Shown: in pieces, positions 1 to 64,000 of the stretch
Layout: each line of letters opens with the position of its first letter
Position numbering within the stretch: the first letter of the stretch is position 1
Origin: Agromyces sp. Leaf222
GTDB lineage: Bacteria > Actinomycetota > Actinomycetes > Actinomycetales > Microbacteriaceae
Length of the DNA stretch: 64,000 bases
Reading direction: 5' to 3'
Assembly (NCBI RefSeq): GCF_001421565.1
Contig: NZ_LMKQ01000001.1
Span: 805,651-869,650, forward strand
Position numbers and translations under genes: made by a program
The notes under the pieces: generated by a model
Seen by the model: only the letters and a program-made list of their open reading frames with translations
The model's database searches: none
What the model was told of the DNA's origin: nothing

Positions 1-91
1 CGGCGGCGACGCCTACCGATCCGCCAAGGCGCGGTTCGACCCCGACTCACGACTCCTCGACCTCTATGCGAAGGCGGTGCAACGTCGATGA
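1..91 (+). CDS. C-terminal end of a probable FAD-linked oxidoreductase (partial)
   Basis: Reading from base 2, the last 29 codons give a tail ending in DPDSRLLDLYAKAVQRR and a TGA at 89-91, which overlaps the ATG of the next gene as ATGA, so the two are translationally coupled. A 'FDPD.R..DLY' tail is typical of FAD-binding oxidoreductases that accompany CFA-type methyltransferases in actinobacteria. In mycobacteria and relatives such a pair (UfaA1/BfaB with BfaA, also called TmsB/TmsA) makes 10-methyl fatty acids such as tuberculostearate: the methyltransferase forms a 10-methylene intermediate and the flavoprotein reduces it. The identification rests mainly on this context; the catalytic part lies outside the window. 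Confidence 0.55.
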   Translation, partial: GGDAYRSAKARFDPDSRLLDLYAKAVQRR

Positions 92-1470
92 CGACGACCA
101 AGGGACCGATGACCGGCACGGCGGGTTCGAACGACCCGACGGAACCGAATGATCCGTTCGGCCGAGCGGATGCCGCGGGCGGCCCGGATGCCGCAGGCAA
201 GCTCACGCTGGCGCAGATCCTCGAGATCTTCGCGGGCGGGCGCCTGCCCCTGCGGTTCACCGCGTACGACGGGAGCTCGGCGGGTCCGCCCGATGCGGCG
301 CTCGGGATCGAGCTGACGAGCCCGCGCGGCACGACGTATCTCGCGACAGGTCGTGGCGACCTGGGCCTCGCGCGTGCGTACATCGCCGGCGATCTCGAGA
401 TCCACGGGGTGCACCCGGGCGATCCCTACGAACTGCTGAAGGCCCTGGCCGACGAGCTCGTCTTCAAGCTGCCGCCGCCCAAGCTCATGGCGCAGGTCGT
501 GCGGTCGATCGGCGTCGAGCACCTGCGCCCCATCGCCCCGCCGCCGCAGGAGGTGCCGCCGAGGTGGCGCAGGGTCGCCGAGGGGCTGCGGCACAGCAAG
601 TCGCGCGACGCCGAGGCGATCCACCACCACTACGACGTCTCGAACACGTTCTACGAGTGGGTGCTCGGGCCGTCGATGACGTACACCTGCGCCTGCTATC
701 CCTCGCTCGAGGCGACGCTCGACGAGGCCCAGGAGAACAAGTACCGGCTCGTCTTCGAGAAGCTTCGGCTGAAGCCGGGCGACCGCCTGCTCGACGTCGG
801 ATGCGGCTGGGGCGGCATGGTGCGCTACGCCGCACGCCGCGGTGTGCGGGCGATCGGGGTCACCCTGTCCGAGGAGCAGACGTCGTGGGCGCAGCGCGCC
901 ATCGACGACGAAGGCCTCTCCGGCCTGGCCGAGGTGCGGTTCGGCGACTACCGCGACATCCGCGAGACCGGCTTCGACGCCGTCTCGTCGATCGGACTGC
1001 TCGAGCACATCGGGGTCAAGAACTACGCCTCGTACTTCGGGTTCCTGCAGTCGCGGCTGCGCACGGGCGGGCTGCTGCTCAACCACTGCATCACCCGCCC
1101 CGACAACACCTCGCAGCCCTCGGCGAAGGGATTCATCGACCGGTACGTCTTCCCCGACGGGGAGCTCACGGGCTCCGGCCGCATCATCCGCGAGGCGCAG
1201 GATGTCGGGCTCGAGGTGCTGCACGAGGAGAACCTGCGACCGCACTACGCGCTCACCCTGCGCGACTGGTGCGCGAACCTCGTCGCCCACTGGGACGAGG
1301 CGGTCGCCGAGGTCGGCCTGCCCACCGCGAAGGTGTGGGGGCTGTACATGGCAGGGTCGCGGCTCGCGTTCGAGTCCGGCGGCATCCAGCTGCACCAGGT
1401 GCTGGCCGTCAGGCCCGACGAGCATGGCGGCAACGGGGGGCTGCCGCTGCGGCCGTGGTGGGCGGCCTGA
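88..1470 (+). CDS. Cyclopropane-fatty-acyl-phospholipid synthase family methyltransferase (tuberculostearate-type)
   Basis: 460-residue SAM-dependent methyltransferase acting on unsaturated acyl chains of membrane phospholipids. After a roughly 25-residue low-complexity N-terminus comes a SCP2-like lipid-facing region, then the CFA core: HHYDVSNTFYEWVLG near residue 180, the TYTCACY element near 196, the SAM-binding LLDVGCGWGG near 235, and the LLEHIG segment near 305. The C-terminal helices (WGLYMAGSRLAFESGG) are also typical. The gene overlaps the preceding flavoprotein gene by four bases (ATGA). This arrangement suggests it works as the methylene-transferring half (TmsB/UfaA1 type) of 10-methyl fatty acid synthesis rather than making cyclopropane rings. 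A true cyclopropane synthase is the alternative. A perfect palindromic terminator follows. Confidence 0.88.
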   Translation: MTTTKGPMTGTAGSNDPTEPNDPFGRADAAGGPDAAGKLTLAQILEIFAGGRLPLRFTAYDGSSAGPPDAALGIELTSPRGTTYLATGRGDLGLARAYIAGDLEIHGVHPGDPYELLKALADELVFKLPPPKLMAQVVRSIGVEHLRPIAPPPQEVPPRWRRVAEGLRHSKSRDAEAIHHHYDVSNTFYEWVLGPSMTYTCACYPSLEATLDEAQENKYRLVFEKLRLKPGDRLLDVGCGWGGMVRYAARRGVRAIGVTLSEEQTSWAQRAIDDEGLSGLAEVRFGDYRDIRETGFDAVSSIGLLEHIGVKNYASYFGFLQSRLRTGGLLLNHCITRPDNTSQPSAKGFIDRYVFPDGELTGSGRIIREAQDVGLEVLHEENLRPHYALTLRDWCANLVAHWDEAVAEVGLPTAKVWGLYMAGSRLAFESGGIQLHQVLAVRPDEHGGNGGLPLRPWWAA

Positions 1471-1500
1471 CCCGTCGAGCACGATCGACGCCGACGTGAC

Positions 1501-1530
1501 GAGGGGCGGATGCCGCGGCATCCGCCCCTC
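1501..1530. terminator. Perfect 30-bp palindrome with GGATGCCGCGGCATCC core
   Basis: Two 15-base arms (GAGGGGCGGATGCCG and its exact complement) with no loop lie between two convergent genes, 30 bases after the methyltransferase stop and 11 before the permease stop. Its position suits a bidirectional terminator without a U-tract. It is one of a family in this window that shares the 16-base core. Confidence 0.7.
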
Positions 1531-1541
1531 GCATGCGAGCG

Positions 1542-3134: not shown

Positions 3135-3614
3135 TCAGAGCACGACGGTCTCGTTCTCGCCGCCGTCGTAGCGTTCGCCGGTCACCTTCGCCTTGACGAA
3201 GCTGATCAGGGTGGCGATGCGCCCGCCCGGGGTGTCCCAGTACTCGCCCGACTCGGCGGTGACCTTGATGAGCACCGCGTTCGGGCTCTGCGGGCCGTCC
3301 GGCAGCCACGCCTCGACCGCGGCATCCCACAGTTCGTCCTTGCGGGCGGGATCGTCGACGAGCTCGGCGAGACCGGCGAACGAGACGAACGTCGACCCCG
3401 AGTTCAGGGTGACGCCGACGTTCGCGTTCGCCGAGATCTCGCTCGCGTCGCGCGAGTCGCGCTCGGCGAAGTACCAGATCACACCGTCATCGGTCACCTC
3501 GCGCGGCGACATCGGCCGGGAGACGAGCTTGCCGTCGCCGGTCACGGTCGTCAGCCATCCGAACGGGATGCCGCGCGCGAGTTCGATGATGCGTTCCTTC
3601 TCGGTGCCGGGCAT
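3135..3614 (-). CDS. Pyridoxamine 5'-phosphate oxidase-fold (general stress protein 26-like) protein
   Basis: 159-residue single-domain flavin-binding split-barrel protein. The order GWLTTVTGDGKLVSRPM, then VIWYFAERDSRDASEI, VGVTLNSGSTFVSFAGLAELV, and a C-terminal EYWDTPGGRIATLISFVKA match the GS26/PPOX-like family, which binds FMN, FAD or F420 and is commonly linked to oxidative or general stress. Start chosen at the ATG with AAGGAGGGG four bases upstream. It is monocistronic and divergent from the HelD gene, separated by 137 bases. The biochemical substrate cannot be read from sequence. Confidence 0.85.
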   Translation of the reverse strand: MPGTEKERIIELARGIPFGWLTTVTGDGKLVSRPMSPREVTDDGVIWYFAERDSRDASEISANANVGVTLNSGSTFVSFAGLAELVDDPARKDELWDAAVEAWLPDGPQSPNAVLIKVTAESGEYWDTPGGRIATLISFVKAKVTGERYDGGENETVVL

Positions 3615-3690
3615 GGCCCCTCCTTCGATCGTCGTGTCACTCGACGCTAGGCCGACCGGCGGGCACGCTGCAGGGGATTGACTTCACAGG

Positions 3691-3721
3691 TGGATGTCGC
3701 GGCATCCATCGCGGGTAGAAT
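3691..3721 (+). promoter_or_regulatory. Promoter of the HelD gene with overlapping imperfect palindrome
   Basis: A -10 hexamer TAGAAT at 3716-3721 lies 30 bases before the proposed start. An 18-base palindrome with one mismatch (TGGATGTCG against CGGCATCCA, 3691-3708) covers the -35 area. This is the only copy of the GGATGCC/GGCATCC palindrome family in the window that sits at a promoter between divergent genes rather than at gene ends. Confidence 0.5.
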
Positions 3722-3751: not shown

Positions 3752-5995
3752 ATCGCCAGCAGCACTTCCACCACGCCCGTCGCCGAGGAGCAGGCGGCGC
3801 TCGACCACATCCGCGGGGTCGTCGCCGGACTCGTCGAGCAGGAGGCCGAGTACCTCCGCGCGATGCTCGGCCGACCCAGCGACGAGCTGAACCTCACCGA
3901 GCGCGATGCCCTCGTCGCGCACCATGCGCAGCGCCTCCAGGGGCTCCGCACCGCGTCGTACGGCCTGCTCTTCGGCGGCATCGAGACCGATGAGGGCGAG
4001 CGGTTCCGCATCGGCCGCATCGGGCTCAGCGACCCCGACGACGGCGAACGACTGCTCATCGACTGGCGTGCGCCCGTGGCGCGCCCGTTCTACACGGCGA
4101 CGCCGCTGCACCGTGAGGGCGTCAAGGCCAGGCGTCGCATCTCGTCGACCGATCGCACCGTGACGGCGGTCTACGACGAGCCGCTGCTCGTCGACCTCGA
4201 CCACCCCGACGCCGTCGCGGAGACTGCGGGCGATGGGGCGGATGCCGCGCTCATGGCCGCACTCGACCGGCCGCGCACGGCGCACATGAGCGACATCGTC
4301 GGCACGATCCAGCGCGAGCAGGATGCGATCATCCGCGGTCCGCTCGCGGGCACCCTCGTCGTGCAGGGCGGGCCGGGCACCGGCAAGACGGCCGTCGCCC
4401 TGCAGCGCGCGGCGTACCTGCTCTACGAGCACCGCAACCGGCTCTCGAAGTCGGTCGTGCTCATCGTCGGCCCGAACCTGCGGTTCCTCGAGTACATCTC
4501 GCAGGTGCTGCCGTCGCTCGGCGAGGACTCGGCCGTGCTCGTCACGCCGAGCACGCTCGTGCCCGGCGTCACCGCGACCGCGACCGATTCCGCCGTCGCG
4601 GCCGAGTTCAAGGGCCGGCTCGACATCGTCGCCGCGCTCAAGCAGGCCGTGCGCGCCTTCGAGGTCTCGCACGACGGCGACCTCGTGCTGCGCCCGGCCG
4701 GCCTCAAGCCGATGACCCTCGACGGCCGGCTGCTCGCGCGCGTGCGCTCGCGTGGCCGCGCCGGCGCGACGCCGCACAACGCGGCCCGGCCGAAGTTCGA
4801 GAAGGCGCTGCTGACCGAGATCCTGCGCCTCGAGGATGCCGAGCACGGTGCCTCGGCGATGGAGGACTGGGAGCGGCGCGCCGACTGGGCCGAAGACCCG
4901 GCCGTGCAGGAGCTCTTCGACGAGCTCTGGCCGCTGCTCGACCCGGTCGACGTGATTCGCGAGCTGTTCAGCGACGCCGACCGGCTCGACGCGGCGTTCC
5001 CCTCGATCGACCCGTCGCTGCGATCGGCGCTGCTCCGCCCCCGCGAGCACGGCCTCACGCCCGCCGACATCCCCCTCGTCGATGAGCTCGCCGAGCTGCT
5101 CGGCCACGATCCGCGGCCGATGACCGCCGCCGCGGCGCAGGCGAGGGCCGACCGGGCGACCGACCTCGCCTACGCGCAGAACGTGCTCGACATGGTGACC
5201 GACGCCGATGCCGATGAAGACCACTTGAGCGCGCCCGTCGAGATCGTGAGCGCCGCGATGCTCGCCGACCGCCAGGTCGCCGGCGATGGCCGCACGCCCG
5301 CGGAGCGCGCGATGGCCGACCGCGAGTGGGTCTACGGCCACGTCATCGTCGACGAGGCGCAGGAGACGAGCCCGATGCTGCTGCGCGCGCTCATCCGCCG
5401 CTGCCCGTCGCGGTCGATGACCCTCGTCGGCGACGCGAACCAGTACACGGCCACCGACGCCCCGTTCACCTGGGCGGGCCTGCTCGACCCGCAGGTGCCG
5501 AGATGGAGCCGCACCGACCTCACCGTCAACTACCGCACCCCCGGTCGCATCATGCGGCTCGCGACCGGCGTGCTGCGCCGTATCGACCCGGGCGTGCACG
5601 AGCCGACGTCGGCTCGCGACGGCGAGCACGAGCCCAGTGTCGTGCGCGTCGCACCCGCCGACCTCGGAGAGGCGACCGCGCGGGCGGCCGTCGAGTCGCT
5701 CGCGCAGAGCGAGGGCACGGTCGGCGTGATCGCACCGCTCGGGGTGCTCGGCGCCCTGCGCGAGGTCCGCGCGGCCGAGGCCGCCGCGGCCGCCGCGAGC
5801 GGCGCTGCCGACCGGCTCTGGGTGGGCACGCCCGACGACGCGAAGGGCCTCGAGTTCGACGCCGTCGTGGTGGCCGTGCCGCCGATGCCGGCGCCGCAGG
5901 CGGTCTCCGTCGCGACGTGGAAGCGGCTCTACGTCGCACTCACGAGGCCGACGCAACGGCTCACCGTCGTCGAGGCGGGCGACGTCATCGGCTGA
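3752..5995 (+). CDS. helD: HelD/HelR-family RNA polymerase-recycling ATPase
   Basis: UvrD/Rep-like superfamily 1 ATPase that in related bacteria removes RNA polymerase from nucleic acid; the HelR branch also protects against rifamycins. Motifs: Walker A GGPGTGKTAVALQRAAYLLY near residue 205, DEAQ Walker B near 532, GDANQ near 558, NYRTPGR near 592 and VALTRPTQRL near 726. The only in-frame ATG (3863) would remove about 37 residues that contain the expected helical N-terminus (EEQAALDHIRGVVAGLVEQE). No ATG, GTG or TTG exists between the upstream stop (3716) and 3863. An ATC at 3752, seven bases after GGAG and 25-30 bases after a good -10, is the best start, giving 747 residues, the family's normal size. 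ATC initiation is rare, so a sequencing error for ATG is the alternative. Confidence 0.88.
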   Translation: MASSTSTTPVAEEQAALDHIRGVVAGLVEQEAEYLRAMLGRPSDELNLTERDALVAHHAQRLQGLRTASYGLLFGGIETDEGERFRIGRIGLSDPDDGERLLIDWRAPVARPFYTATPLHREGVKARRRISSTDRTVTAVYDEPLLVDLDHPDAVAETAGDGADAALMAALDRPRTAHMSDIVGTIQREQDAIIRGPLAGTLVVQGGPGTGKTAVALQRAAYLLYEHRNRLSKSVVLIVGPNLRFLEYISQVLPSLGEDSAVLVTPSTLVPGVTATATDSAVAAEFKGRLDIVAALKQAVRAFEVSHDGDLVLRPAGLKPMTLDGRLLARVRSRGRAGATPHNAARPKFEKALLTEILRLEDAEHGASAMEDWERRADWAEDPAVQELFDELWPLLDPVDVIRELFSDADRLDAAFPSIDPSLRSALLRPREHGLTPADIPLVDELAELLGHDPRPMTAAAAQARADRATDLAYAQNVLDMVTDADADEDHLSAPVEIVSAAMLADRQVAGDGRTPAERAMADREWVYGHVIVDEAQETSPMLLRALIRRCPSRSMTLVGDANQYTATDAPFTWAGLLDPQVPRWSRTDLTVNYRTPGRIMRLATGVLRRIDPGVHEPTSARDGEHEPSVVRVAPADLGEATARAAVESLAQSEGTVGVIAPLGVLGALREVRAAEAAAAAASGAADRLWVGTPDDAKGLEFDAVVVAVPPMPAPQAVSVATWKRLYVALTRPTQRLTVVEAGDVIG

Positions 5996-6038: not shown

Positions 6039-6524
6039 ATGCCGATCTCCGAAGCCGATCTCGTCCACCTGCGTCGCGCCGTCGAACTCGCACGCGAAGC
6101 GCTCGACTCGGGCGACGGCCCGTTCGGCTCGGTGCTCGTCGATGCGCTCGGCGTCGAACGGTTCGCCGATCGCAACCGCGAAGAGAGCACGGGCGATGCG
6201 ACGCGGCATCCGGAGTTCGAGATCGCGCGCTGGGCGGCCGTGAACCTGACGCCCGAGCAACGCGCGGCGGCCACCGTCTACACGTCGGGGGAGCACTGCG
6301 CCATGTGCTCCGCGGCGCACGCGTGGGTCGGCCTCGGGCGCATCGCGTACGTCGCCTCGGCCGAGCAGATCTCCGGCTGGCGTGCGGCGGCGGGCAGCGC
6401 TCCGTCGGCGGTCGCCCCGCTCCCGATCACGGCCGTCGCGCCCGCCGTGGTCGTCGACGGGCCGGCCGACGAGCTCGTGCCCGAGGTGCGCGCGCTCATC
6501 GTGCGGGCTGTGCGGCAGGGCTGA
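6039..6524 (+). CDS. Cytidine/deoxycytidylate deaminase-family nucleoside deaminase
   Basis: 161 residues with the CDA zinc fold: HPEFEIARWA near residue 56 supplies the histidine and catalytic glutamate region, and EHCAMC (84-89) the two zinc cysteines (usually PCxxC; here proline is replaced by histidine). These enzymes hydrolytically deaminate free purines or nucleosides (guanine, adenosine or related); the HPEF form differs from the HAE of tRNA adenosine deaminase TadA, so tRNA editing is unlikely. A CAGACT box six bases before the ATG, with GGGAGG in between, suggests a very short or absent leader. It lies 43 bases after helD. Confidence 0.8.
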   Translation: MPISEADLVHLRRAVELAREALDSGDGPFGSVLVDALGVERFADRNREESTGDATRHPEFEIARWAAVNLTPEQRAAATVYTSGEHCAMCSAAHAWVGLGRIAYVASAEQISGWRAAAGSAPSAVAPLPITAVAPAVVVDGPADELVPEVRALIVRAVRQG

Positions 6525-6690
6525 ACGGCACGGCTACTCGGGCCGCTGACCACGGTAGGTCGGCGCGGCGCTCGCCGGATCCGCCGCGCGGGGGAGATCG
6601 CGACGAGATCCCGCTGCCCCGGATGCCGCGGCGAACGCGCGTCGGCCATGCGCGTTGGGGCAAACCCGTGCGTCGTCCGCGGCTCGCGCG

Positions 6691-7737: not shown

Positions 7738-7755
7738 CGGATGCCGCGGCATCCG
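7738..7755. terminator. Perfect 18-bp GGATGCCGCGGCATCC-core palindrome
   Basis: CGGATGCCG followed directly by its complement, 26 bases after the transglycosylase stop. It belongs to the shared palindrome family and lies just before a second, ordinary hairpin. Confidence 0.6.
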
Positions 7756-13610: not shown

Positions 13611-19172
<5,562 letters not shown>

Positions 19173-20492: not shown

Positions 20493-20524
20493 GAGGACGG
20501 GGATGCCGCGGCATCCCCGTCCTC
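20493..20524. terminator. Perfect 32-bp GGATGCCGCGGCATCC-core palindrome
   Basis: 16-base arms (GAGGACGGGGATGCCG and complement) between convergent genes. The core matches the other family members, while the outer arms differ and are still perfectly compensated. Confidence 0.7.
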
Positions 20525-34162: not shown

Positions 34163-34251
34163 GCCGCGTACGCGGCAGCGCGCCGCATGAGTCACGGCTT
34201 CGGCGAGCGGATGCCGCGTGGCGGCGCGGCTGCGGTCGGTAGCCTCGCGGT

Positions 34252-44323: not shown

Positions 44324-45301
44324 TCAGCGCGGCAGCACCTCGGCGAGGCGCTCGAGCTCGCCGAGGCGGTCGTCGCCGATCGGCGTGAGCACGACCGTGG
44401 TCGCGCCCGCCGCGTGCCGGGCGGCGAGGCGCTCGCGCACCTGCTCGGCGGTGCCCGCGAGGGCGAGCTCGGCGACCCACTCGTCGGGCAGGCGCTCGGC
44501 GAACTCCTCGGGGCTCGACGACGACGCGCGCAGCCGTGCGAGGTCGTCGGCGAAGGGCAGGCCGACGAGGTGCGGCGCCCAATCGGGCTCGCCGATCCAC
44601 GCGAGTCCGGGGCGCACGCGGGCGAGGGCGGCCTGCGGGTCTGCATCGACCGCCGCGACGTCGTAGGTCACGACGAGGTGGCTCGCGGCATCCGTCGCCC
44701 CGCTCCTGACGTGCTCGACGGCGGCCGCGATGTACGGGGGTGCTGCGGGTTCGGCGAGCACCACGCCGTCGGCCGTCGCGCCGGCGACCGCGAGCGACTT
44801 CGGCCCGCGGACGCCGAGGATCACGGGCGGCACCACCGAGGCGGGCTCGACGAGCTCGACCCCGGCGACGTCGACGTACCGACCGGCGGCCGGGCCCGGC
44901 TCGCCGCGGAGCAGCGCGCGCACGGCCGTCGTGTACTCGCCGAGCAGGGTCAGCGGGCTCTTCGGCCAGGCGCCGACCTGACGCATCCAGTCGGGCATGC
45001 CGTGCCCGATGCCGGCGACGAACCGGCCGGGGAACATGAGCGCGAGCGTGTTGAGCTCCATCGCGGTGAAGGCCGCATTGCGCGCACCGGCGGGCAGGAT
45101 GCCGACGCCGACGGTGATGTGCTCGGTCGCCGCGAGCACGGCGCCGGCCTGGGCGAGCCCCCCGCGGAACCCGAGGTCCTCGACGAGCCAGACCTCGTCG
45201 AAGCCGAGCTCCTCGACACGCCGCGCGTACGGCAGCACCTGGTCGACGGGCAGGTCACGGGGCAGGAGGACGCCGACGTTGGCGTTGCTGGGAGCGGTCA
45301 C
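44324..45301 (-). CDS. LLM-class flavin- or F420-dependent oxidoreductase
   Basis: 325 residues of the luciferase-like TIM barrel: VGVLLPRDLPVDQVLPYARR start, GFDEVWLVEDLGF, VGVGILPAGARNAAFTAMEL, FVAGIGHGMPDWM and VILGVRGPKSLAVAG. Such proteins use FMN or, often in actinobacteria, F420 for two-electron reductions. Start at GTG 45301, next to a GGAAGGA-like site, because the family begins close to this point. Divergent from the leader ORF and pentapeptide gene. Substrate unknown. Confidence 0.82.
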   Translation of the reverse strand: MTAPSNANVGVLLPRDLPVDQVLPYARRVEELGFDEVWLVEDLGFRGGLAQAGAVLAATEHITVGVGILPAGARNAAFTAMELNTLALMFPGRFVAGIGHGMPDWMRQVGAWPKSPLTLLGEYTTAVRALLRGEPGPAAGRYVDVAGVELVEPASVVPPVILGVRGPKSLAVAGATADGVVLAEPAAPPYIAAAVEHVRSGATDAASHLVVTYDVAAVDADPQAALARVRPGLAWIGEPDWAPHLVGLPFADDLARLRASSSSPEEFAERLPDEWVAELALAGTAEQVRERLAARHAAGATTVVLTPIGDDRLGELERLAEVLPR

Positions 45302-45389: not shown

Positions 45390-46049
45390 ATGGCGAAGCA
45401 GACTCGCACGATCGCCCCTCGCCTCGACCGCATCGTGCTGCCCGACCTCGACGAGGCGGATGCCGCGGTGCTCGCGACTGGCGCAGACCTCGAGGGTGTG
45501 CGGGTCGTCGGCGGCGACCTCGCAGAGCGCGACCTCACCGGCATCCGCCTGCGCGAGGTCGAGATCGCAGGCGTCGCGGCCCACGACGTGCACCTGCGCG
45601 GGGCCGACATCGCCGAGAGCGTGCTCGACCGCTGGGACGCTCCCGTGCTGCGGGCGCCGCGCGCGAGCCTCCGCGACGTGGTCGTGTCGAACTCGCGCAT
45701 CGGGTCGGTGGAGTTCTACGAGGACACCTGGCAGGCCGTGCACTTCGTGGGCTGCAAGCTCGGGTTCGTGAACCTCCGCGGCGCGACGCTGCGCGACGTG
45801 CGGTTCACCGACTGCACGGTCGACGAACTCGACCTCGGCGGGGCCAGGGTCGAGCGCATGGCGTTCACGGATTCCGACGTGCGCTCGCTCGACGTCACCG
45901 GCGCGCGGCTCGCCGACGTCGACCTCCGCGGCCTCGACCTCGACGTGACCGGGGTCGAAGGGCTGCGCGGCGCCACGATGGACGAACTGCAGGTCGCGCT
46001 CATCGCGACCCGGTTGGCCGAGCATCTCGGCATCCGCATCGTCGGCTGA
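45390..46049 (+). CDS. Pentapeptide-repeat-like protein
   Basis: 219 residues forming a right-handed quadrilateral beta-helix by sequence: repeated A(D/N)LxG-type units such as ADLEGVRVVGGDLAERDLTG, VRLRG-type HLRGADIAESVLD, FVNLRGATLRDVRFTDCTV and LDVTGARLADVDLRGLDLD. Repeats run from about residue 28 to 195, with a short helical C-terminus (MDELQVALIATRLAEHLG). Some family members mimic DNA and protect gyrase from quinolones (Qnr, MfpA), but most have no known role. No Shine-Dalgarno; the start lies two bases behind the leader ORF stop. Confidence 0.8.
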   Translation: MAKQTRTIAPRLDRIVLPDLDEADAAVLATGADLEGVRVVGGDLAERDLTGIRLREVEIAGVAAHDVHLRGADIAESVLDRWDAPVLRAPRASLRDVVVSNSRIGSVEFYEDTWQAVHFVGCKLGFVNLRGATLRDVRFTDCTVDELDLGGARVERMAFTDSDVRSLDVTGARLADVDLRGLDLDVTGVEGLRGATMDELQVALIATRLAEHLGIRIVG

Positions 46050-47094: not shown

Positions 47095-47126
47095 GGAGGG
47101 GCGGATGCCGCGGCATCCGCCCCTCC
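47095..47126. terminator. Perfect 32-bp GGATGCCGCGGCATCC-core palindrome
   Basis: 16-base arms (GGAGGGGCGGATGCCG and complement) between convergent prpB and the GAP-family gene. Almost identical to the palindrome at 1501-1530. Confidence 0.7.
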
Positions 47127-50529: not shown

Positions 50530-51825
50530 GTGAAGATCGTCATCGTCGGAGCCGGAATCGGCGGACTGGCCACGGCCCTGAGTCTCGCGGCGGCGGGGTT
50601 GCGCGACGTGACCGTCGTCGAGCGGGCCCAGGGGCTCCGGCCGCTGGGCGTGGGCATCAACCTGCTGCCGCACGCCGTGCGCGAGCTCACCGAGCTCGGA
50701 CTCGTCGACGCGGTCGCCGCGATCGGCACGGCGCCCGGTCGCCTCTCGTACTTCAACCGCTTCGGGCAGCCCGTGTGGAGCGAGCCCCGCGGACTCGAGG
50801 CGGGCTACCACTGGCCGCAGCTCTCGGTGCACCGCGGCGAGTTCCAGCTGCTGCTCGCCGACGAGGTGCGACGCCGCCTCGGCGCCGACGCGATCCGGCT
50901 GGGCTGGCGAGCGACGGGCGTCGAGCACGGGGTCGCCGGTGCGGACGGCCGCGTCGTCGAGCGGGCGAGGTTCGCGGATGCCGCGGGCGCCGAGCTCGTG
51001 CTCGACGCCGACGTCGTGATCGGGGCCGACGGCATCCACTCCGCCCTGCGGGCGCAGGCGCACCCGACCGAAGGCGCACCGCCGTGGAACCGCCTCGTGC
51101 TCTGGCGCGGCACCGCCCTCGCCCCCACCTACCTCGACGGCCGCACGATGATCATGGCCGGTGACGCCGAGCAGAAGTTCGTCGCCTACCCGCTCGTCGC
51201 CCCCGGCACCGAGGCGGGCATGACCCGCGTGAACTTCATCGCCGAGCGTCGTGCGCCAGAGGGCGTCGACGAGACCGCCGACTGGAACCACGCCGTCGAC
51301 CCGGCGCCCATCGTCGACCTCTTCGCCGACTGGGACTTCGACTGGCTCGACGTGCCGGCGATCATCGGCGCCGCCGACGAGATCCTCGAGTACCCGATGG
51401 TCGACCGCGATCCCCTCGACCGCTGGACGGTCGGGCGCACGACGCTCCTCGGGGACGCCGCGCACGCGCTCTACCCGAACGGCTCGAACGGCGCCTCGCA
51501 GGCGATCCTCGACGCCCGGTCGCTCGCCTTCCACCTCGCGACCACGGCCGACGGGGGCCCCGACGGCATCGATGCCGCGCTCGCCGCATACGAGGCCGAC
51601 CGCCGGCCCATCACGACGAAGCTGTCGGCGATGACGCGGCAGCTCGGCCCCGAGCGGGTGATGCAACTCGCCTTCGAACGGGCGCCGCAGGGGTTCGCCG
51701 ACATCCACGACGTGATCCCAGAGGCCGAGCTGCGGGAGATCGCCGACGCCTACAAGGTGGCGGCCGGCTTCCACCCCGAGTTGCTCAACGAGCGCTCGTC
51801 GCTGACCCCGGCGGCGCGGGCATGA
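50530..51825 (+). CDS. FAD-dependent aromatic hydroxylase, PhzS-like
   Basis: 431 residues, class A flavoprotein monooxygenase using NAD(P)H and O2. VIVGAGIGGLATALSLAAAG (ADP-binding GxGxxG, residues 3-22), GVGINLLPHAVREL, WSEPRGLEAGYHWPQLSVHR, DG motif IGADGIHSAL near 164 and GDAAHALYPNGSNGASQAIL (second FAD motif) near 313 match the PhzS/6-hydroxynicotinate-type branch closely, including YPMVDRDPLDRW. Start at GTG 50530 behind AAGGAGG. Coupled by ATGA to a MarR gene, then DUF3237. No phenazine genes are present, so it probably modifies an external aromatic compound. Confidence 0.87.
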   Translation: MKIVIVGAGIGGLATALSLAAAGLRDVTVVERAQGLRPLGVGINLLPHAVRELTELGLVDAVAAIGTAPGRLSYFNRFGQPVWSEPRGLEAGYHWPQLSVHRGEFQLLLADEVRRRLGADAIRLGWRATGVEHGVAGADGRVVERARFADAAGAELVLDADVVIGADGIHSALRAQAHPTEGAPPWNRLVLWRGTALAPTYLDGRTMIMAGDAEQKFVAYPLVAPGTEAGMTRVNFIAERRAPEGVDETADWNHAVDPAPIVDLFADWDFDWLDVPAIIGAADEILEYPMVDRDPLDRWTVGRTTLLGDAAHALYPNGSNGASQAILDARSLAFHLATTADGGPDGIDAALAAYEADRRPITTKLSAMTRQLGPERVMQLAFERAPQGFADIHDVIPEAELREIADAYKVAAGFHPELLNERSSLTPAARA

Positions 51826-52372
51826 GCATCGCGGCGCGCGCGTCGGCCGGCGAGGCCGGCGGCGCATCCGCCGAGGCGGCCGACGGCCTCGACGTGGCCC
51901 GCCTCAGCGGCCTCATCTCGCCGCTGCGACGCAGCCTCCTGCGCGCCGCGCGGGCGGCCGAGCACCTGCCCGACCTCCCCGACGCGCAGGTCGAGGTGCT
52001 CCGCGCGCTCCCGGTCGACACGGCGCGAAGCCCCGTGGAGCTGGCCGAGGACTTGAGCCTCAACCGCACGACCGTCAGCAACCTGCTGAAGTCGATGGAA
52101 GCCGGCGGGCTCGTCACGAGGGCGACGGATGCCACAGACCGCCGCCGCGTCGAGGTGCGCGCCTCGGCCGAGGCGCACCGCCTGCTCGAACGGTTCGACG
52201 CCGCGAGCGCGAGCCTCGTCGGCGACGCACTCTCCGCCCTCGGACCGGCCGATGCGGCCGCCCTCGCCGCGGCGCTGCCCGCCCTCGAGCGGCTGCGCGA
52301 CACGCTGCAGGAGCGCTCGCGGGCCGACCGCGGCATCCGCTCGACCGCCGATGTCGCCGTAGAGGCACGCGC

Positions 52373-52376: not shown

Positions 52377-54309
<1,933 letters not shown>

Positions 54310-54915
54310 CTACGGTTGCGCGTCGCGCCCTTCCGCCGAGAGCGGCACGCCGGGGCCGACGAGCACGCGCCAGACCCAGTCGGCCGCGATCTCGACGCTC
54401 GGCCGTGGCTCGAGCTCGAGCCATGCCTGGATGACGGCCATGCACGACCCCGCGATGCCGGCCGCGACGATGTCGATCGGGAGCCCTTCGAAGGCCGTCG
54501 TGCCCGACGAGATGACGCCTGCCCTCGCCTGCGCCTCGAACCGGGCGCGGATGCGCGCGACGACGATGGGGGAGCCGCGCTCGCCCAGCACGCGCCGGTA
54601 GAGCGCGGCATCCGTCTCGAAGTGCTGCAGGAACGCGATCATCGCCGGCGGCAGCTGCGCGGGGATGTCGGTCGGCGTGCCGAGGTCGGCGACGGCGTCG
54701 ATCTCGGCCGCCTCGATGGCGTCGGCGAGCAGCAGCTGCCGGTCGTCGTAGTGCTGGTAGAAGCTCGAGCGGTTGACGCCGGCCTCGTCGGTGATCTCGG
54801 CGACCGTCGCGTCGTCGAAGCGGCCTGCGCGCGCGAGGTCGAGCGCCGCCTGCTGCAGTGCCCGCCGGGTGCGCTCGACGCGCGCATCCACTCGGTCGTC
54901 GGTCGATTCCGTCAC
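54310..54915 (-). CDS. TetR-family transcriptional regulator
   Basis: 201 residues. HTH at about 13-60: RTRRALQQAALDLARAGRFD, VAEITDEAGVNRSSFYQHYD. The C-terminal ligand domain (TetR_C_33-like, LPPAMIAFLQHFETDAALYR) is variable. First gene of the unit with the rifampicin monooxygenase and divergent from the SDR gene; the large palindrome at 54960-54989 lies between and is the probable operator for both directions. Confidence 0.88.
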   Translation of the reverse strand: MTESTDDRVDARVERTRRALQQAALDLARAGRFDDATVAEITDEAGVNRSSFYQHYDDRQLLLADAIEAAEIDAVADLGTPTDIPAQLPPAMIAFLQHFETDAALYRRVLGERGSPIVVARIRARFEAQARAGVISSGTTAFEGLPIDIVAAGIAGSCMAVIQAWLELEPRPSVEIAADWVWRVLVGPGVPLSAEGRDAQP

Positions 54916-55034: not shown

Positions 55035-56036
55035 ATGGCTCTCACCGCCAACTCCACCATCGCCGAGTGGCTCGCCGACCCCGCAGGCAAGGCCGCGCTC
55101 CAGGGCCTCGTGAGCCAGGGCGGCGGTTCGATCGACCAGCTCGCCCCCATCGCGAGCCTGCCCCTGCAGCAGCTCGTCGTCATGAGCCAGGGCCAGATGC
55201 CGCAGGCGGCCGTCGATGAGCTCGTGAAGGCCGTGAACGGCGGCGTCATCCCCGAAGACGCCGAGTCCACCGCCTGGCAGGAGCAGGTCACCCCCGGCCG
55301 CTTCGCCGGCAAGACCGTGATCGTCACCGGCGCGGCATCCGGCATCGGCCGCGCCACCGCGAGCCGCATCGCACGTGAGGGCGGCCGCGTCGTCGCCGTC
55401 GACATCTCGGCCGAGAAGCTCGACGAGTTCGCGGCATCCATCCCCGGCGCCGAGATCGTGCCCGTCGCCGGCGACATCACCAAGCAGGAGTCGATCGACG
55501 CGATCGCCGCCGCCGCCGGCGAGAAGATCTTCGGCCTCGCGAACGTCGCCGGCATCAACGACGACTTCTCGCCGATCCACGAGACGCCCGACGCCATCTG
55601 GGACAAGGTCATGGCCGTCAACGTCACCGGTACGTTCAAGCTCACCCGCGCGGTCGTGCCGTTCATGCTCGAGGCTGGCAAGGGCTCGATCGTCAACGTC
55701 GCGAGCGAGGCCGGCCTGCGCGGCAACGCGTCCGGCAACGCCTACACGGCCTCGAAGCACGCCGTCGTCGGCCTCACCAAGTCGGCCGCCTTCATGTACG
55801 CCCTGCAGGGCGTGCGCGTGAACGCCGTCGCCCCCGGCGGCGTCGCGACCGGCATCCCGTTCCCCCCGCACGTGTCCGAGGTCGGCTCCGCCCGGCTCGC
55901 GCCGTTCCAGGGTGCGATCCCGTCGGTCGCGACCGCCGAGGCGCTCGCCGCCTCGATCACGTTCCTGCTCAGCGAGGACGCCGTCAACATCAACGGCGCG
56001 ATCCTCGCCTCGGACGGCGGCTGGTCGGTGCAGTAA
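55035..56036 (+). CDS. Short-chain dehydrogenase/reductase with N-terminal helical module
   Basis: 333 residues. Residues about 1-85 form a helical module (TIAEWLADPAGKAALQGLVS, SLPLQQLVVMSQGQMPQAAV) that resembles C-terminal modules of some actinobacterial GH3 glycosidases. The SDR domain starts near 93: VIVTGAASGIGRATASRIA (NAD(P) motif), NVAGIND, catalytic Ser in IVNVASEAG and YTASKHA (Tyr and Lys), ending with ILASDGGW. Oxidoreductase acting on an unknown alcohol/ketone. Controlled by the TetR operator upstream. AAAGGA lies eight bases before the ATG. Confidence 0.86.
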   Translation: MALTANSTIAEWLADPAGKAALQGLVSQGGGSIDQLAPIASLPLQQLVVMSQGQMPQAAVDELVKAVNGGVIPEDAESTAWQEQVTPGRFAGKTVIVTGAASGIGRATASRIAREGGRVVAVDISAEKLDEFAASIPGAEIVPVAGDITKQESIDAIAAAAGEKIFGLANVAGINDDFSPIHETPDAIWDKVMAVNVTGTFKLTRAVVPFMLEAGKGSIVNVASEAGLRGNASGNAYTASKHAVVGLTKSAAFMYALQGVRVNAVAPGGVATGIPFPPHVSEVGSARLAPFQGAIPSVATAEALAASITFLLSEDAVNINGAILASDGGWSVQ

Positions 56037-56068: not shown

Positions 56069-56102
56069 GGGCGGGGCGGATGCTGCGGCATCCGCCCCGC
56101 CC
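56069..56102. terminator. 34-bp near-perfect GGATGC-GCATCC palindrome
   Basis: 17-base arms with one mismatch (GGATGCTG opposite CGGCATCC), 32 bases after the SDR stop. Member of the shared-core family. Confidence 0.68.
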
Positions 56103-56275: not shown

Positions 56276-58537
56276 ATGGATGAGCAGCCGACACCGCCCA
56301 CGCCCGAGATTCCCGCAGCCTGGTACCCCGACCCCTCGGGTGGCGCCGGACAGCGCTGGTGGGACGGCACGAAGTGGACCGAGCACGTGCACCCCGCGGG
56401 TGCGGATGCCGCGCCGAACGCGGCGTCTGTCGCTGGCGCGACCGGCGGCGAGGCGGCCGACGGCACGGCGCCCGCACCGAAGCGTTCGCGCCGCGGCCTC
56501 GTCATCGGGCTCATCGCCGGCGGCACCGCGGTGCTGCTCGTCGCCGGAACGGTCATCGGCCTGAACGTGGCCGGGGTGTTCGGCGGCGACGACCTGACCA
56601 CGGTCGGCGGCTACGACTACGCGGCGCCGATGCTCGACCTGGAGCGCGACCACGAGTTCGAGTTCCGCGCCGCCTACGACCTCGAGGCGAAGGCGAGCGA
56701 AGTCGGGGCGGAGGAGTTCGACACCGACTTCGCCTTCGAGGTGTTCACGGATGCCGCGCTCAGCAAGCACGCCCCGATCATGGTGAATCAGTGGAACGAC
56801 ACGGTCACCATTTCCGCTCAAGAGGACGCCGAGGCCCGTTACGCCGACAGCGACGCGTTCGAAGGCCGCGAAGCGGAGAGCCCCCGCATCCGAGACGTCG
56901 GCGAGGCCTACGGCGCCTGGGGCCTGAACGCCACCTACTACCTCGTGCAGCACCTCGACGAGCAGGGCGCCGAACTCGATCGCCCGCGTGTCACCCCGTT
57001 CACCGTGCAGCACGAGCTCGAGGCGCCGACCGTGACCTTCGCCACCGACGGCGGCACGGGCAACCTCAGTGTCGCCTGGCAGGCGGTCGAGGGAGCGAGC
57101 AGCTACCTCGTCGTGGCGTCGTCGACCAACGGCAACACGCGGGAGATCTCCGTCGTCGGCGAGACCGACGGCGAGACGACCTGGTCGACCACCGATGCCG
57201 TGTTCGACATGAACGAGGGCAGCAAGGCGACCTGGGCGATCGAGCAGAACGTCGGTCTGCAGCTCTTCGACCGCAGTGCCGACGAGCTCGAGAACGACGC
57301 CACGGCGTACCAGATGGCCGAGCTGCTGCGCAGCGCCGAGTTCGATCTCGGCGTGATCGCGACCGACGGCACGTCGTACTCGCCGTACATCTCGTACGAC
57401 GGGCTCTCGGTGGCCGGCGACCTGCCCTTCACACGGGCCGAGGGCGCCACCGACGAGCTGTACCCCGACCGCATCGTCGGCGTCGCGAACCTGCAGTCCG
57501 TGCCGACGAAGTTCGCGTTCACCTCGCTCGACGGGGCCACGCGCCAGAGCGTCGCGTACGCCGACCCCGCCGCAGTCGTCGAGTACCCCGACTACTCCGC
57601 CGTCGGCATCCGGGGCAAGGGCACCGACCTCGGCATGTGGCTGAACCTCGAGCGCGGAGTCGACGTCGCGGCCGAGATCGCCGCGTTCAACGCGCGCGCT
57701 GAGGCCGAGGCGCCGACCACCGGTGGCGGCGTCGAGCTCGTCTCCGCCCCGGTCGACGAGATGATCGACCAGTTCGAGCCGTCGACGACGGCTCCGGCGA
57801 CCGATCTGCCCGTCGTCGCGAGCAACGACTTCACGCGCTACCTCGCCGCGAACCTCATCGACCGCCAACAGGCGATCGACGTCTCGGCGTACGTCGGCGC
57901 GCCCGGCATGCCCTCGCTCGACGACGCGATCCAAGAGGCCACGGAGCAGAACCCCTACGTGGTCGGCGTCGACGGCTACGGGGCGAGCGACGGCATCCTC
58001 TACGTGACCTACACGGCCTCGGCCGACGACCTCGCCGCGAACCGCGATGCGACGTATGCGAAGGCGCAGGAGGTGGTCGCCGAGGTGATCACCGACGGCA
58101 TGGGCGACGCCGAGAAGGTCACCGCGCTGAACGACTGGATCACGGCGAACGCGGAGTACGACTACGAGGCGCTCGCCGCGAAGGAGGCCCTCGGCTCCGT
58201 CCCCGACGCGGAGGCGGCGGCCTGGCAGGCCTCCGGCGCGTTGGTCGACGGCTCGGCGGTGTGCGCCGGGTACGCGTACGCGTTCGAGGCGCTGGCCCTC
58301 GAGGCCGGGCTCGACGCGGTGGTCGTCACCGGTGACGTCACGGCCGGCGGTCGCCACGCATGGAACAAGGTCTCGATCGACGGCCGGTGGCTCGCGGTCG
58401 ACACCACCTGGAACGACGACGAGGCGGCGAACCAGTACCTCATGATCACCGACGCGGAGTTCACCGGGCCGGCCGAGCGTACCGAGGACATCTTCTGGAT
58501 GCAGGACTCGCGCATCGGCGACTACGCGGCGAAGTAG
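56276..58537 (+). CDS. DUF2510 / transmembrane / transglutaminase-like cysteine protease-fold protein
   Basis: 753 residues. DUF2510 motif AAWYPDPSGGAGQRWWDGTKW (about 14-34), a linker, one membrane helix (about 74-98), a large external part with Ig-like segments (fibronectin-like region about 245-320), then a transglutaminase-like domain near 600-753. The triad is intact: C663 in GSAVCAGYAYAFE, H694 in GGRHAWNKV and D709 in LAVDTTWND. Probable cell-wall or surface cross-linking or processing enzyme. TAAACT at 56261-56266 lies nine bases before the ATG with no Shine-Dalgarno. Confidence 0.85.
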   Translation: MDEQPTPPTPEIPAAWYPDPSGGAGQRWWDGTKWTEHVHPAGADAAPNAASVAGATGGEAADGTAPAPKRSRRGLVIGLIAGGTAVLLVAGTVIGLNVAGVFGGDDLTTVGGYDYAAPMLDLERDHEFEFRAAYDLEAKASEVGAEEFDTDFAFEVFTDAALSKHAPIMVNQWNDTVTISAQEDAEARYADSDAFEGREAESPRIRDVGEAYGAWGLNATYYLVQHLDEQGAELDRPRVTPFTVQHELEAPTVTFATDGGTGNLSVAWQAVEGASSYLVVASSTNGNTREISVVGETDGETTWSTTDAVFDMNEGSKATWAIEQNVGLQLFDRSADELENDATAYQMAELLRSAEFDLGVIATDGTSYSPYISYDGLSVAGDLPFTRAEGATDELYPDRIVGVANLQSVPTKFAFTSLDGATRQSVAYADPAAVVEYPDYSAVGIRGKGTDLGMWLNLERGVDVAAEIAAFNARAEAEAPTTGGGVELVSAPVDEMIDQFEPSTTAPATDLPVVASNDFTRYLAANLIDRQQAIDVSAYVGAPGMPSLDDAIQEATEQNPYVVGVDGYGASDGILYVTYTASADDLAANRDATYAKAQEVVAEVITDGMGDAEKVTALNDWITANAEYDYEALAAKEALGSVPDAEAAAWQASGALVDGSAVCAGYAYAFEALALEAGLDAVVVTGDVTAGGRHAWNKVSIDGRWLAVDTTWNDDEAANQYLMITDAEFTGPAERTEDIFWMQDSRIGDYAAK

Positions 58538-58648: not shown

Positions 58649-58668
58649 GCGGATGCCGCGGCATCCGC
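58649..58668. terminator. Perfect 20-bp GGATGCCGCGGCATCC-core palindrome
   Basis: GCGGATGCCG and its complement, between the transglutaminase gene and the next promoter. Member of the shared-core family; here both flanking genes point the same way. Confidence 0.62.
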
Positions 58669-62553: not shown

Positions 62554-62585
62554 GATGAGGCCCCTCCGTCAGGAGGGGCCTCATC
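62554..62585. terminator. Bidirectional terminator
   Basis: Perfect 14-base arms (GATGAGGCCCCTCC and complement) with loop GTCA, between the convergent M1 peptidase and ectB genes. Confidence 0.82.
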
Positions 62586-62628
62586 ACGTCGGGCGTGGTG
62601 CGCTGGTCTCGGTACGGCGCCGGCGCGC

Positions 62629-63906
62629 CTACTCGACCGGCGAGGCGAGTGCGGCCGCGAGGCTCTCGCGCACGATCGCGAGGCCGGCCAGCAGCTCGTC
62701 TTCGGAGATCGTGAGCGCGGGCAGGAACTTCAGCACCTCGTCGTGGGCGCCGGAGGTCTCGATCACGAGGCCGCGCGTGAACGCCTGCTTCGAGATGCGG
62801 GCCGCGAGGCCGCGGTCGGCGTCGCAGGCGAGGCCGTACATGAGTCCGCGGCCGCGCACCACGAAGCCGAGCTCGGGGTTCTCGGCGGCGATGCGCTCGA
62901 GCTCGGTGCGCAGCAGCGCCGACTTGGTGGCGACGTCGTCGACGAGCGCCGTGTCGGCCCAGTAGTTCTCGAGGGCGGCGCGGGCGGAGACGAAGGCGAG
63001 GTTGTTGCCGCGGAAGGTGCCGGTGTGCGCGCCGGGCTTCCAGACGTCGACCTCGGGGCGCAGCAGCACGAGCGACATCGGCAGGCCCGAGCCCGAGATC
63101 GACTTCGACACGGTCACGATGTCGGGGACGATGCCCGAATCCTCGAACGCGAAGAACGCGCCGGTGCGGCCGACGCCCGCCTGGATCTCGTCGAGGATCA
63201 GCAGGATGCCGCGGTCGGCCGTGATCGCCCGCAGGCGCTGCAGCCACGCGGCGCTCGCGACGTTGATGCCGCCCTCGCCCTGCACGGCCTCGACGATGAC
63301 GGCGGCGGGCAGGTCGACGCCGGAGCCCGGGTCGTCGAGCATCTTCTCGAGCAGGTCGAGGGTGTCGACATCGGCCCCGAGGTAGCCGTCGTAGGGGAGG
63401 CGGGTGATGTTGTCGAGCGTGATGCCCGCTGCGCCGCGGTAGTGGCTGTTGCCGGTGGCGGCGAGGGCGCCGATGCTCAGGCCGTGGAACGCGTTCGTGA
63501 ACGCGACGACGTTGGTGCGGCCGGTCGCCTGGCGGGCGACCTTGAGGGCGGCCTCGACGGCGTTCGCCCCCGTCGGGCCGGTGAACTGCAGCTTGTGGTC
63601 GAGCCCGCGGGGTTCGAGCACGAGGCGCTCGAACGCCTCGATGAACGCCTTCTTGGCCGAGGTGGCCATGTCGAGGCCGTGGATGATGCCGTCGCGCTCG
63701 AGGTACTCGATGAGCGCGCGCGTGAAGAGCGGGTTGTTGTGCCCGTAGTTGAGCACGCCGGCGCCGGCGAAGAAGTCGAGGTACTCGCGGCCGTCTTCGC
63801 CCACCAGGGTCGAGCCGACGGCGCGATCGAACACGACCGGGAAGGCGCGCACGTACCCGCGCACCTCGGATTCACGGCGGTCGAAGACTTCGAGTGCGTC
63901 GCTCAT
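62629..63906 (-). CDS. ectB: L-2,4-diaminobutyrate:2-oxoglutarate aminotransferase
   Basis: 425 residues, class III PLP aminotransferase. It makes diaminobutyrate from aspartate semialdehyde, the first step to ectoine. FFAGAGVLNYGHNNP, LQFTGPTGANAVEAALKVAR, AFHGLSIGALAATGN, LILDEIQAGVGRTGAFFAFE and the PLP lysine in VTVSKSISGSGLPMSL are EctB signatures. AGAGGT precedes the ATG. EctC (ectoine synthase), normally next downstream, is absent: the terminator and a convergent peptidase gene follow. A 45-base gap separates it from a partial upstream gene on the same strand. Confidence 0.9.
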   Translation of the reverse strand: MSDALEVFDRRESEVRGYVRAFPVVFDRAVGSTLVGEDGREYLDFFAGAGVLNYGHNNPLFTRALIEYLERDGIIHGLDMATSAKKAFIEAFERLVLEPRGLDHKLQFTGPTGANAVEAALKVARQATGRTNVVAFTNAFHGLSIGALAATGNSHYRGAAGITLDNITRLPYDGYLGADVDTLDLLEKMLDDPGSGVDLPAAVIVEAVQGEGGINVASAAWLQRLRAITADRGILLILDEIQAGVGRTGAFFAFEDSGIVPDIVTVSKSISGSGLPMSLVLLRPEVDVWKPGAHTGTFRGNNLAFVSARAALENYWADTALVDDVATKSALLRTELERIAAENPELGFVVRGRGLMYGLACDADRGLAARISKQAFTRGLVIETSGAHDEVLKFLPALTISEDELLAGLAIVRESLAAALASPVE

Positions 63907-63951
63907 GGCAGGCAGGACCTCTTTCTGTTCGGCGTCGGCGGTGAGAGAAGC

Positions 63952-64000
63952 CTAAGCCTCCCGGCTGGGCGTCGGCGCCGAGGCAGTCGGCGCCGAGGCA
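63952..64000 (-). CDS. C-terminal end of an upstream gene, possibly ectA (partial)
   Basis: On the minus strand an open frame enters from the window edge and ends in ASAPTASAPTPSREA with TAG at 63954-63952, 45 bases before ectB. The tail contains a 15-base direct repeat (GTCGGCGCCGAGGCA on the plus strand, twice). Position suggests diaminobutyrate acetyltransferase EctA, as in ectABC operons, but these residues are not diagnostic. Confidence 0.35.
   Translation of the reverse strand, partial: ASAPTASAPTPSREA

What the first reader, a model, noticed from the sequence alone, without database searches (positions are those of the whole stretch)
1..64000. Over-represented DNA word GCGGATGCCGCGG scattered in both orientations, forcing rare codons
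Seen: beyond the palindromes, the core GGATGCCGCG or its complement CGCGGCATCC occurs inside or near many unrelated genes, for example 166-178, 4238-4249, 6621-6632, 18824-18834, 22813-22823, 34207-34218, 45456-45468, 50370-50380, 50974-50986, 52385-52397, 53623-53633, 56402-56413 and 56749-56758. In the other orientation it occurs at 6202-6211, 15877-15888, 19759-19769, 32297-32310, 36612-36625, 44685-44695, 54606-54616 and 55331-55342. A rough estimate from base composition gives only one or two copies of a given 9-mer of this type per 64 kb over both strands. In genes it is usually read gcg-gat-gcc or gcg-gca-tcc, using GAT and GCA where this genome strongly prefers GAC and GCC/GCG, so selection on the DNA rather than the protein is suggested. 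Known parallels are uptake sequences of Neisseria and Pasteurellaceae (also found as inverted pairs in terminators), Chi and FtsK-orienting sites. Inference: a chromosomal signature word, perhaps for DNA uptake, repair or segregation, not described for actinobacteria as far as I know.
Basis: partly seen in the sequence, partly recalled or inferred. Interest (0 to 1): 0.78.

Follow-up and report, generated by a model that had tools for sequence, protein, structure and literature searches.

The report
Family-wide DNA barcode word in Microbacteriaceae
A soil bacterium and many of its relatives carry up to thousands of copies of one short DNA word, with dialects between lineages, which looks like the self-recognition barcode that some unrelated bacteria use to take up mainly their own kind's DNA.

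Summary
GGATGCCGCG occurs 38 times in the window (shuffled mean 1.1) and 2541 times in the 4.43-Mb genome (reversed control 37); nearest named relative Agromyces allii. The motif is RRC-GGATGYCGCGG with an intolerant GGAT core. Synonymous shuffling predicts 15 copies in genes where 180 are seen. Copies are strand-symmetric (102 leading, 103 lagging), scarce in low-GC DNA, and form inverted pairs after stop codons. In 184 genomes of other families of the order counts reach at most 123. Some relatives without the word carry other words sharing GGA, mostly GGAT; GGAGGCGCGG is confined to 3 of 80 genomes. Best explanation: a DNA uptake signal working like Neisseria DUS or Haemophilus USS, read by a Tad/Flp-pilus and ComEA/ComEC machine. 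ComEA, ComEC and a T2SSE-type ATPase occur in 80 of 80 panel genomes, wordless ones included, so no gene tracks the word; uptake was not tested and no receptor identified. Seven open-literature searches gave no description.

The parts
168..177 (+). word, in CDS 88-1470 (GAT GCC GCG)
1508..1523 (.). overlapping inverted pair (palindrome GGATGCCGCGGCATCC) between convergent gene ends, 37 bp after a stop codon
3318..3327 (-). word, in CDS 3135-3614
3566..3575 (+). word, in CDS 3135-3614 (antisense)
3698..3707 (-). word, intergenic; overlaps a GTGGATGTCGCGG variant (3690-3702) in the other orientation
4240..4249 (+). word, in CDS 3863-5995
6202..6211 (-). word, in CDS 6039-6524
6621..6630 (+). word, intergenic
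7739..7754 (.). overlapping inverted pair (palindrome) 26 bp after a stop codon
15877..15886 (-). word, in CDS 13611-19172
18824..18833 (+). word, in CDS 13611-19172
19760..19769 (-). word, in CDS 19305-19886 (GCG GCA TCC)
20501..20516 (.). overlapping inverted pair (palindrome) between convergent gene ends, 27 bp after a stop codon
22813..22822 (+). word, in CDS 21947-23083
32298..32307 (-). word, in CDS 31960-32880
34209..34218 (+). word, intergenic
36613..36622 (-). word, in CDS 35543-37111
38684..38693 (+). word, in CDS 38676-39299 (antisense)
44684..44693 (-). word, in CDS 44324-45301
45458..45467 (+). word, in CDS 45390-46049
47103..47118 (.). overlapping inverted pair (palindrome) between convergent gene ends, 30 bp after a stop codon
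50370..50379 (+). word, in CDS 49846-50397
50976..50985 (+). word, in CDS 50530-51825
52329..52338 (-). word, in CDS 51822-52376
52387..52396 (+). word, in CDS 52373-52864
53623..53632 (+). word, in CDS 52849-54285 (antisense)
54604..54613 (-). word, in CDS 54310-54915
55331..55340 (-). word, in CDS 54984-56036
55430..55439 (-). word, in CDS 54984-56036
56076..56095 (.). inverted pair of one-mismatch variants, 41 bp after a stop codon
56404..56413 (+). word, in CDS 56276-58537
56749..56758 (+). word, in CDS 56276-58537
58651..58666 (.). overlapping inverted pair (palindrome) 113 bp after a stop codon
63204..63213 (+). word, in CDS 62629-63906 (antisense)

Best explanation
RRC-GGATGYCGCGG is a DNA uptake signal of Microbacteriaceae. 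During natural transformation a surface receptor, most likely a minor pilin of the Tad/Flp pilus or the DNA-binding protein ComEA, binds DNA that carries the word; ComEC imports one strand; it recombines with the chromosome. Because word-bearing alleles are taken up preferentially, copies accumulate over the chromosome, in both orientations, wherever proteins tolerate them (Asp-Ala-Ala and Ala-Ala-Ser codons) and as inverted pairs in the hairpins after genes. Lineages whose receptor specificity drifted acquired dialects around a shared GGA(T) core. Shown: the word, its counts, positions, symmetry, family restriction, dialect words, and the presence of competence genes. Inferred: sequence-specific uptake, the receptor, and accumulation by biased uptake.
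For: 2541 copies against 37 for the reversed control, in the range 'hundreds to several thousands' given for DUS and USS (passages of PMC5031613). Intolerant core GGAT with a softer tail. DNA-level: 180 in genes against 15 by synonymous shuffle. No replication-strand bias, 102 leading to 103 lagging while gene bases run 265 to 100 kb. Inverted pairs: 11 overlapping pairs; 14 strong stems among 44 GGATG..CATCC pairs, 10 outside genes, 9 of those 8-113 bp after the stop codon of the gene on their left; terminator-linked inverted pairs are a DUS trait (passages of PMC3630211). Words scarce in low-GC DNA: 2 in 8 five-kb windows under 67% GC, against 1.9-3.4 per window in the other 101 (the 8 come from three stretches). 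Dialects: GGAGGCGCGG 1378, 842 and 688 copies in G035, G218, G031, and no more than 12 above control in the other 77 of 80 genomes; GCAGGATCCG 333 and 236 in G004 and G047; shared core; word states clustered on a ComEC tree, 14 changes against 20.5 shuffled, 0 of 200 as low. DUS dialects likewise share a 3-nt core. ComEC, ComEA and a T2SSE-type ATPase in 80 of 80 panel genomes; own comEA-comEC pair, two Tad loci, two DprA-family genes. Two members of the family are naturally transformable (PMC11577799, passages); in the actinobacterium M. luteus Flp pili are required and comEA and comEC are present (PMC6370729, passages).
Against: No uptake, binding or competence was measured in any word-bearing species. 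ComEC, ComEA and T2SSE-type ATPases are as present in genomes without the word as in those with it, so no gene was found that tracks it. The T4aP-type PilB and the Tad locus of L262 do not track it. The experimentally transformable species belong to the small-genome freshwater branch; genomes of 1.5 Mb or less in the family sample carry at most 23 copies (G065, control 5), so transformation in the family probably does not require the canonical word. Six of the wordless genomes sampled show no dialect either. The GGATCCTGC dialect is not clustered on the tree: its two carriers sit apart. No inverted pair was seen in 120 kb of the GGAGGCGCGG genome G035. Spacing is random, not even (CV 0.944 against 0.945 expected). 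Phage test is too small: 0 words in two related Microbacterium phages where only about 0.7 are expected by composition.
Confidence: 0.7

Rival explanations
1. HIP1-like word: copies created and kept by a DNA methyltransferase or methylation-linked mismatch repair acting on a GGATG- or GGATCC-type site, with no uptake role.
For: HIP1 of cyanobacteria is a highly frequent word with alternatives in exceptional strains, and a methylase/mismatch-repair model is published (PMC4390886, passages). Cores such as GGATG and GGATCC resemble methylase sites (recalled).
Against: The canonical word is asymmetric and 12-13 bp with a graded tail, while HIP1 is an 8-bp palindrome. The core shared by all dialects is only GGA. 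Overlapping pairs after stop codons do not appear in the passages of that model that I saw. One dialect, CGGATCCG, is a palindrome, which fits this rival better than the others do. Methylases were not searched for.
Confidence: 0.12
2. Chi- or KOPS-like site that steers RecBCD/AdnAB recombination or FtsK translocation.
For: Such sites are short, dispersed, over-represented and lineage-specific (recalled).
Against: They act on one strand and are usually skewed with replication (recalled); here 102 to 103 with replichores inferred from gene orientation. Inverted pairs are unexpected, and the word is longer than known Chi sites (recalled).
Confidence: 0.06
3. Binding site of a nucleoid-organising or chromosome-marking protein.
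For: Even orientation and a spread over the genome fit.
Against: Does not readily explain dialect switches within genera (G164 in g85, G286 in g8), the graded tail, or a range from 58 to 1422 copies within one genus.
Confidence: 0.09
4. By-product: codon, dipeptide or terminator preferences, or a REP-type mobile repeat.
For: Some copies lie in hairpins after genes.
Against: Synonymous shuffle gives 15 against 180. Flanks beyond about 13 bp are not conserved, so not a longer repeat. 181 of 224 copies lie in predicted genes.
Confidence: 0.02

Closest known systems
DNA uptake sequence (DUS) of Neisseriaceae
   Same: About 12-bp asymmetric word, up to thousands of copies, intragenic plus inverted terminator pairs, dialects around a shared 3-nt core (PMC3630211 and PMC5031613, passages).
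   Different: Different word and core (GGA(T) instead of CTG); Gram-positive host; type IVa PilB does not track the word (ComP itself was not searched for); inverted pairs mostly overlap, whereas most DUS pairs do not; function untested.
Uptake signal sequence (USS) of Pasteurellaceae
   Same: Dispersed uptake word, dialects, hundreds to thousands of copies (PMC5031613, passages).
   Different: Unrelated 9-bp word; Gram-negative host.
HIP1 of cyanobacteria
   Same: Highly iterated word with lineage-specific alternatives (PMC4390886, passages).
   Different: HIP1 is an 8-bp palindrome linked to methylases; the canonical word here is asymmetric with a graded tail.
Natural transformation of Micrococcus luteus and Rhodoluna lacicola
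   Same: Actinobacteria that take up DNA, with ComEA/ComEC and Flp/Tad pili (M. luteus) or with comEC (Rhodoluna).
   Different: No uptake word was mentioned in the passages seen.

Membership tests
DNA uptake sequences (DUS/USS as a functional class) | Hundreds to thousands of copies of a word of 9 bp or more, far above composition | tested here: met
   2541 against 37; Markov and shuffle nulls
DNA uptake sequences (DUS/USS as a functional class) | Balanced orientation, no replication bias | tested here: met
   1260/1281; 102/103, origin inferred from gene orientation
DNA uptake sequences (DUS/USS as a functional class) | Inverted pairs at terminators | tested here: met
   canonical word; positions only, termination itself not tested; none seen in 120 kb of the GGAGGCGCGG dialect genome G035
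DNA uptake sequences (DUS/USS as a functional class) | Family-level distribution with dialects sharing a core | tested here: met
   only two dialect words counted genome-wide
DNA uptake sequences (DUS/USS as a functional class) | Competence machinery in the same genome | tested here: met
   also present in wordless relatives
DNA uptake sequences (DUS/USS as a functional class) | Words scarce in foreign DNA and phages | tested here: inconclusive
   met for low-GC windows; phage sample too small; 18-bp palindrome 0 in viral contigs, where few would be expected by chance anyway
DNA uptake sequences (DUS/USS as a functional class) | Preferential uptake or binding of word-bearing DNA by a receptor | not testable with these tools
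   needs experiment
HIP1-type iterated palindrome | Word itself palindromic | tested here: not met
   asymmetric canonical motif; one dialect, CGGATCCG, is palindromic
HIP1-type iterated palindrome | Matching methyltransferase | not tested
   no search for methylases and no methylome
Chi / KOPS | Skewed with replication direction | tested here: not met
REP/BIME repeats | Conserved element longer than the word | tested here: not met
   flank profile

The most novel reading that the evidence does not exclude
A third, independently evolved DNA uptake-signal system, the first in Gram-positive bacteria: a family-wide GGA(T)-core word with dialects, read by a Tad/Flp-pilus-ComEA machine, making Microbacteriaceae preferential consumers of their own kin's DNA.
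Probability: 0.65. Interest if true: 0.92.

Novelty: new variant of a known kind. Interest (0 to 1): 0.85.

Why it matters
Genome-encoded uptake specificity is described for two Gram-negative families (passages of PMC5031613). A third origin in Actinobacteria, probably with a different pilus type, would test whether self-preference evolves repeatedly with natural transformation, would predict competence in many soil and plant bacteria not known to be transformable, and would give a simple tool (add the word) for transforming laboratory strains of them. The dialects are a ready natural experiment for finding the receptor.

Tried and rejected
T4aP (PilB) as the receptor system: patchy and not tracking the word; own genome has PilB, but word-rich G142, G280, G106, G215 and G060 show no PilB-type match. 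The Tad locus of L262 as determinant: word-rich G153, G007, G288, G043 and G155 have only the other Tad-type ATPase (that query found 79 of 80 genomes at E 1e-30, missing G286). ComEC or ComEA presence as discriminator: universal in the 80-genome panel. Even spacing as an uptake signature: spacing is random. Phage avoidance: two related Microbacterium phages (Goodman, Sucha), and parts of one Gordonia and one Mycobacterium phage read, 0 words in each but also below 1 expected in each, so no conclusion. A plasmid comparison and two phage look-ups gave nothing relevant. A dialect could not be found in G016, G033, G014, G068, G034 or G030 (60 kb each), nor firmly in G010 or G013. Literature: (open-licence PubMed Central only) showed no description of this word or of an uptake sequence in Actinobacteria; one search listed 11 papers that hold the ten letters, unrelated by title and not opened. 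Subscription papers and preprints were not searched. The strand count was not affected.
Full report
What was checked. The window has 38 exact copies of GGATGCCGCG (shuffle mean 1.08), including five perfect 16-bp palindromes made of two overlapping copies (1508-1523, 7739-7754, 20501-20516, 47103-47118, 58651-58666). The whole genome (4,428,049 bases, 4 contigs) has 1260 + 1281 copies, the reversed pattern 16 + 21. The nearest named DNA is Agromyces allii, 83-92% identical over stretches of 1.7-4.1 kb, so the window is most probably an Agromyces.

The motif. In 424 kb of the genome (the window plus 18 stretches of 20 kb) there are 224 copies against 10.0 expected by an order-3 Markov model. 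The profile is RRC-GGATG-C/T-CGCG-G. Single changes in GGAT, and in the second C after GGATG, fall to 0-2.5 times expectation. The last G of GGATG shows 2.6- to 8.3-fold on few copies (3, 11 and 3). C to T right after GGATG keeps 7.6-fold, and the last three positions tolerate change with 1.5- to 6.5-fold excess. Flanks beyond about 13 bp carry mainly codon periodicity, so this is not a longer repeat.

Selection on DNA. 181 of 224 copies are inside predicted genes (my own codon-based gene finder, 356 genes, 90% coding). Shuffling synonymous codons within each gene gives 15.1 copies (maximum 20 in 30 shuffles) against 180. The word forces GAT (13% of Asp codons) and GCA: 101 of 263 Asp-Ala-Ala are GAT GCC GCG, 75 of 215 Ala-Ala-Ser are GCG GCA TCC. 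Codon-pair bias was not modelled separately.

Arrangement. With replichores inferred from gene orientation, 102 copies lie on the leading and 103 on the lagging strand, although gene bases run 265 to 100 kb. Eleven pairs overlap as palindromes. Of 44 GGATG..CATCC pairs with up to 30 bp between, 14 form stems of 10 bp or more, 4 inside genes and 10 outside; 9 of the 10 lie 8-113 bp downstream of the stop codon of the gene on their left, the tenth 98 bp from the end of the reverse-strand gene on its right. Spacing is otherwise random (224 gaps, CV 0.944 against 0.945 expected). Eight 5-kb windows under 67% GC hold 2 words together; the other 101 average 1.9-3.4 per window by GC class. The eight come from three stretches (L012, L162, L025). 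In the one region compared, 4 of 6 own words are exact at the aligned place in G142 of the same genus (85% identity) and 4 of 9 G142 words are exact in the own genome; none of 7 is shared with G060 and none of 6 with G215 (76 and 73% identity), although all carry the word.

Distribution. In 299 genomes of the family the count grades from 2541 (own), 2246 (G142), 1490 (G280) and 1308 (G060) down to control level; genomes of 1.5 Mb or less carry at most 23 copies. Within one genus (g85) it ranges from 58 (G164) to 1422 (G455). In 184 genomes of other families of the order the largest count is 123 (G370, control 40); a mild excess in G454 (63 against 10) and G415 (48 against 10) is unexplained. 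In 148 other genomes drawn from the phylum the 12-mer never exceeds 29. An 18-bp palindrome has no match in viral contigs, where few would be expected by chance.

Dialects. In relatives without the word, unbiased word counts in 60-140 kb samples found others, profiled: GGAGGCGCGG (G035; 51 against 2.7), GGATCCTGC (G004, G047), CGGATCCG (G164), GYGGATCR (G051, G121), GGATGCnCG (G286), and looser canonical forms in G106 and G060. All share GGA; all but the first share GGAT. Two were counted genome-wide in 80 genomes. GGAGGCGCGG is high only in G035 (1378), G218 (842) and G031 (688); in the other 77 it is at most 12 above its control (G051, 17 against 5), with 157 the largest count (G045, control 262). 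GCAGGATCCG is high in G004 (333) and G047 (236), weaker in G164 (111), and 2-89 elsewhere (own 41, control 0); here the reversed control is near zero everywhere and is not a fair baseline, so the contrast between genomes is what counts. On a 44-genome ComEC tree the word states need 14 changes against 20.5 for shuffled labels, 0 of 200 as low; the two carriers of GGATCCTGC do not group. It is a quick single-gene tree, 20 of 41 inner branches under 80% support, and the states of 35 of the 44 genomes were set by density cut-offs that I chose. Six genomes (G016, G033, G014, G068, G034, G030) show no word in 60 kb.

Machinery. A panel of 80 genomes was used, chosen by me from the 299 for contrast. 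ComEC is in 80 of 80, ComEA in 80 of 80, a T2SSE-type ATPase in 80 of 80. The own genome has adjacent comEA and comEC, two Tad/Flp loci (the TadE match of the second is below Pfam's cut-off), a lone PilB-type ATPase and two DprA-family genes. None of the genes tested separates word-rich from wordless genomes: PilB is patchy, and the L262-type TadA is missing from word-rich G153, G007, G288, G043 and G155.

Literature. Passages read: Rhodoluna lacicola and Aurantimicrobium photophilum, both Microbacteriaceae, are naturally transformable (PMC11577799); Micrococcus luteus needs Flp pili and carries comEA and comEC and two tad clusters (PMC6370729); sequence-specific uptake is described for Pasteurellaceae and Neisseriaceae (PMC5031613); DUS dialects share a 3-nt core and occur as inverted terminator pairs (PMC3630211); HIP1 and methylases (PMC4390886). 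Searches showed no report of this word.

Judgement. Of the sequence-level hallmarks of an uptake signal, copy number, symmetry, terminator-site pairs, dialects and scarcity in low-GC DNA were met; even spacing was not seen, and phage avoidance could not be decided. What is missing is function: no word-rich species has been shown here to be competent, and no receptor was found. I put 0.7 on an uptake signal, 0.12 on a HIP1-like methylation-linked word, 0.09 on a nucleoid protein site, 0.06 on a Chi/KOPS-type site.

Noticed in passing
G000 sample, no single place: A second over-represented coding word, CGAGTCCG (CGGACTCG 111 against 27 expected in 424 kb; 146 copies in 553 kb), with codon-periodic flanks. 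Unexplained.
   Followed up: partly
L012 (G000:C1:700001-720000) and L162 (G000:C2:200001-220000): 20-kb stretches of about 65% GC with 1 and 3 words, probably acquired DNA.
   Followed up: partly
window 22823-32297: 9.5-kb stretch without the word at normal GC.
   Followed up: no
L224-L226 (G050), L201-L204 (G063), L205-L208 (G168): Longer dispersed repeat with core TCGACAGGCTCA (in G050 CTTCGACAGGCTCAGGGACCGG when the listed words are read together), unrelated to the word.
   Followed up: no
L221-L223 (G045) and L230-L232 (G024): Other dispersed repeats, TCTCGATACGC and CCAGCCAACGG.
   Followed up: no
L083 7404-7427: A Bradyrhizobium acaciae contig holds one copy of the 24-bp palindrome in a terminator-like hairpin; chance, transfer or contamination.
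   Followed up: partly
G454 and G415 (family f4, genus g105): Mild excess of the word outside the family (63 against 10 and 48 against 10).
   Followed up: no
L264 10151-11833: Lone PilB-type ATPase gene next to two long genes that look like rpoC and rpoB (names recalled from the sequence, no family search run on those two) in the window's genome.
   Followed up: no
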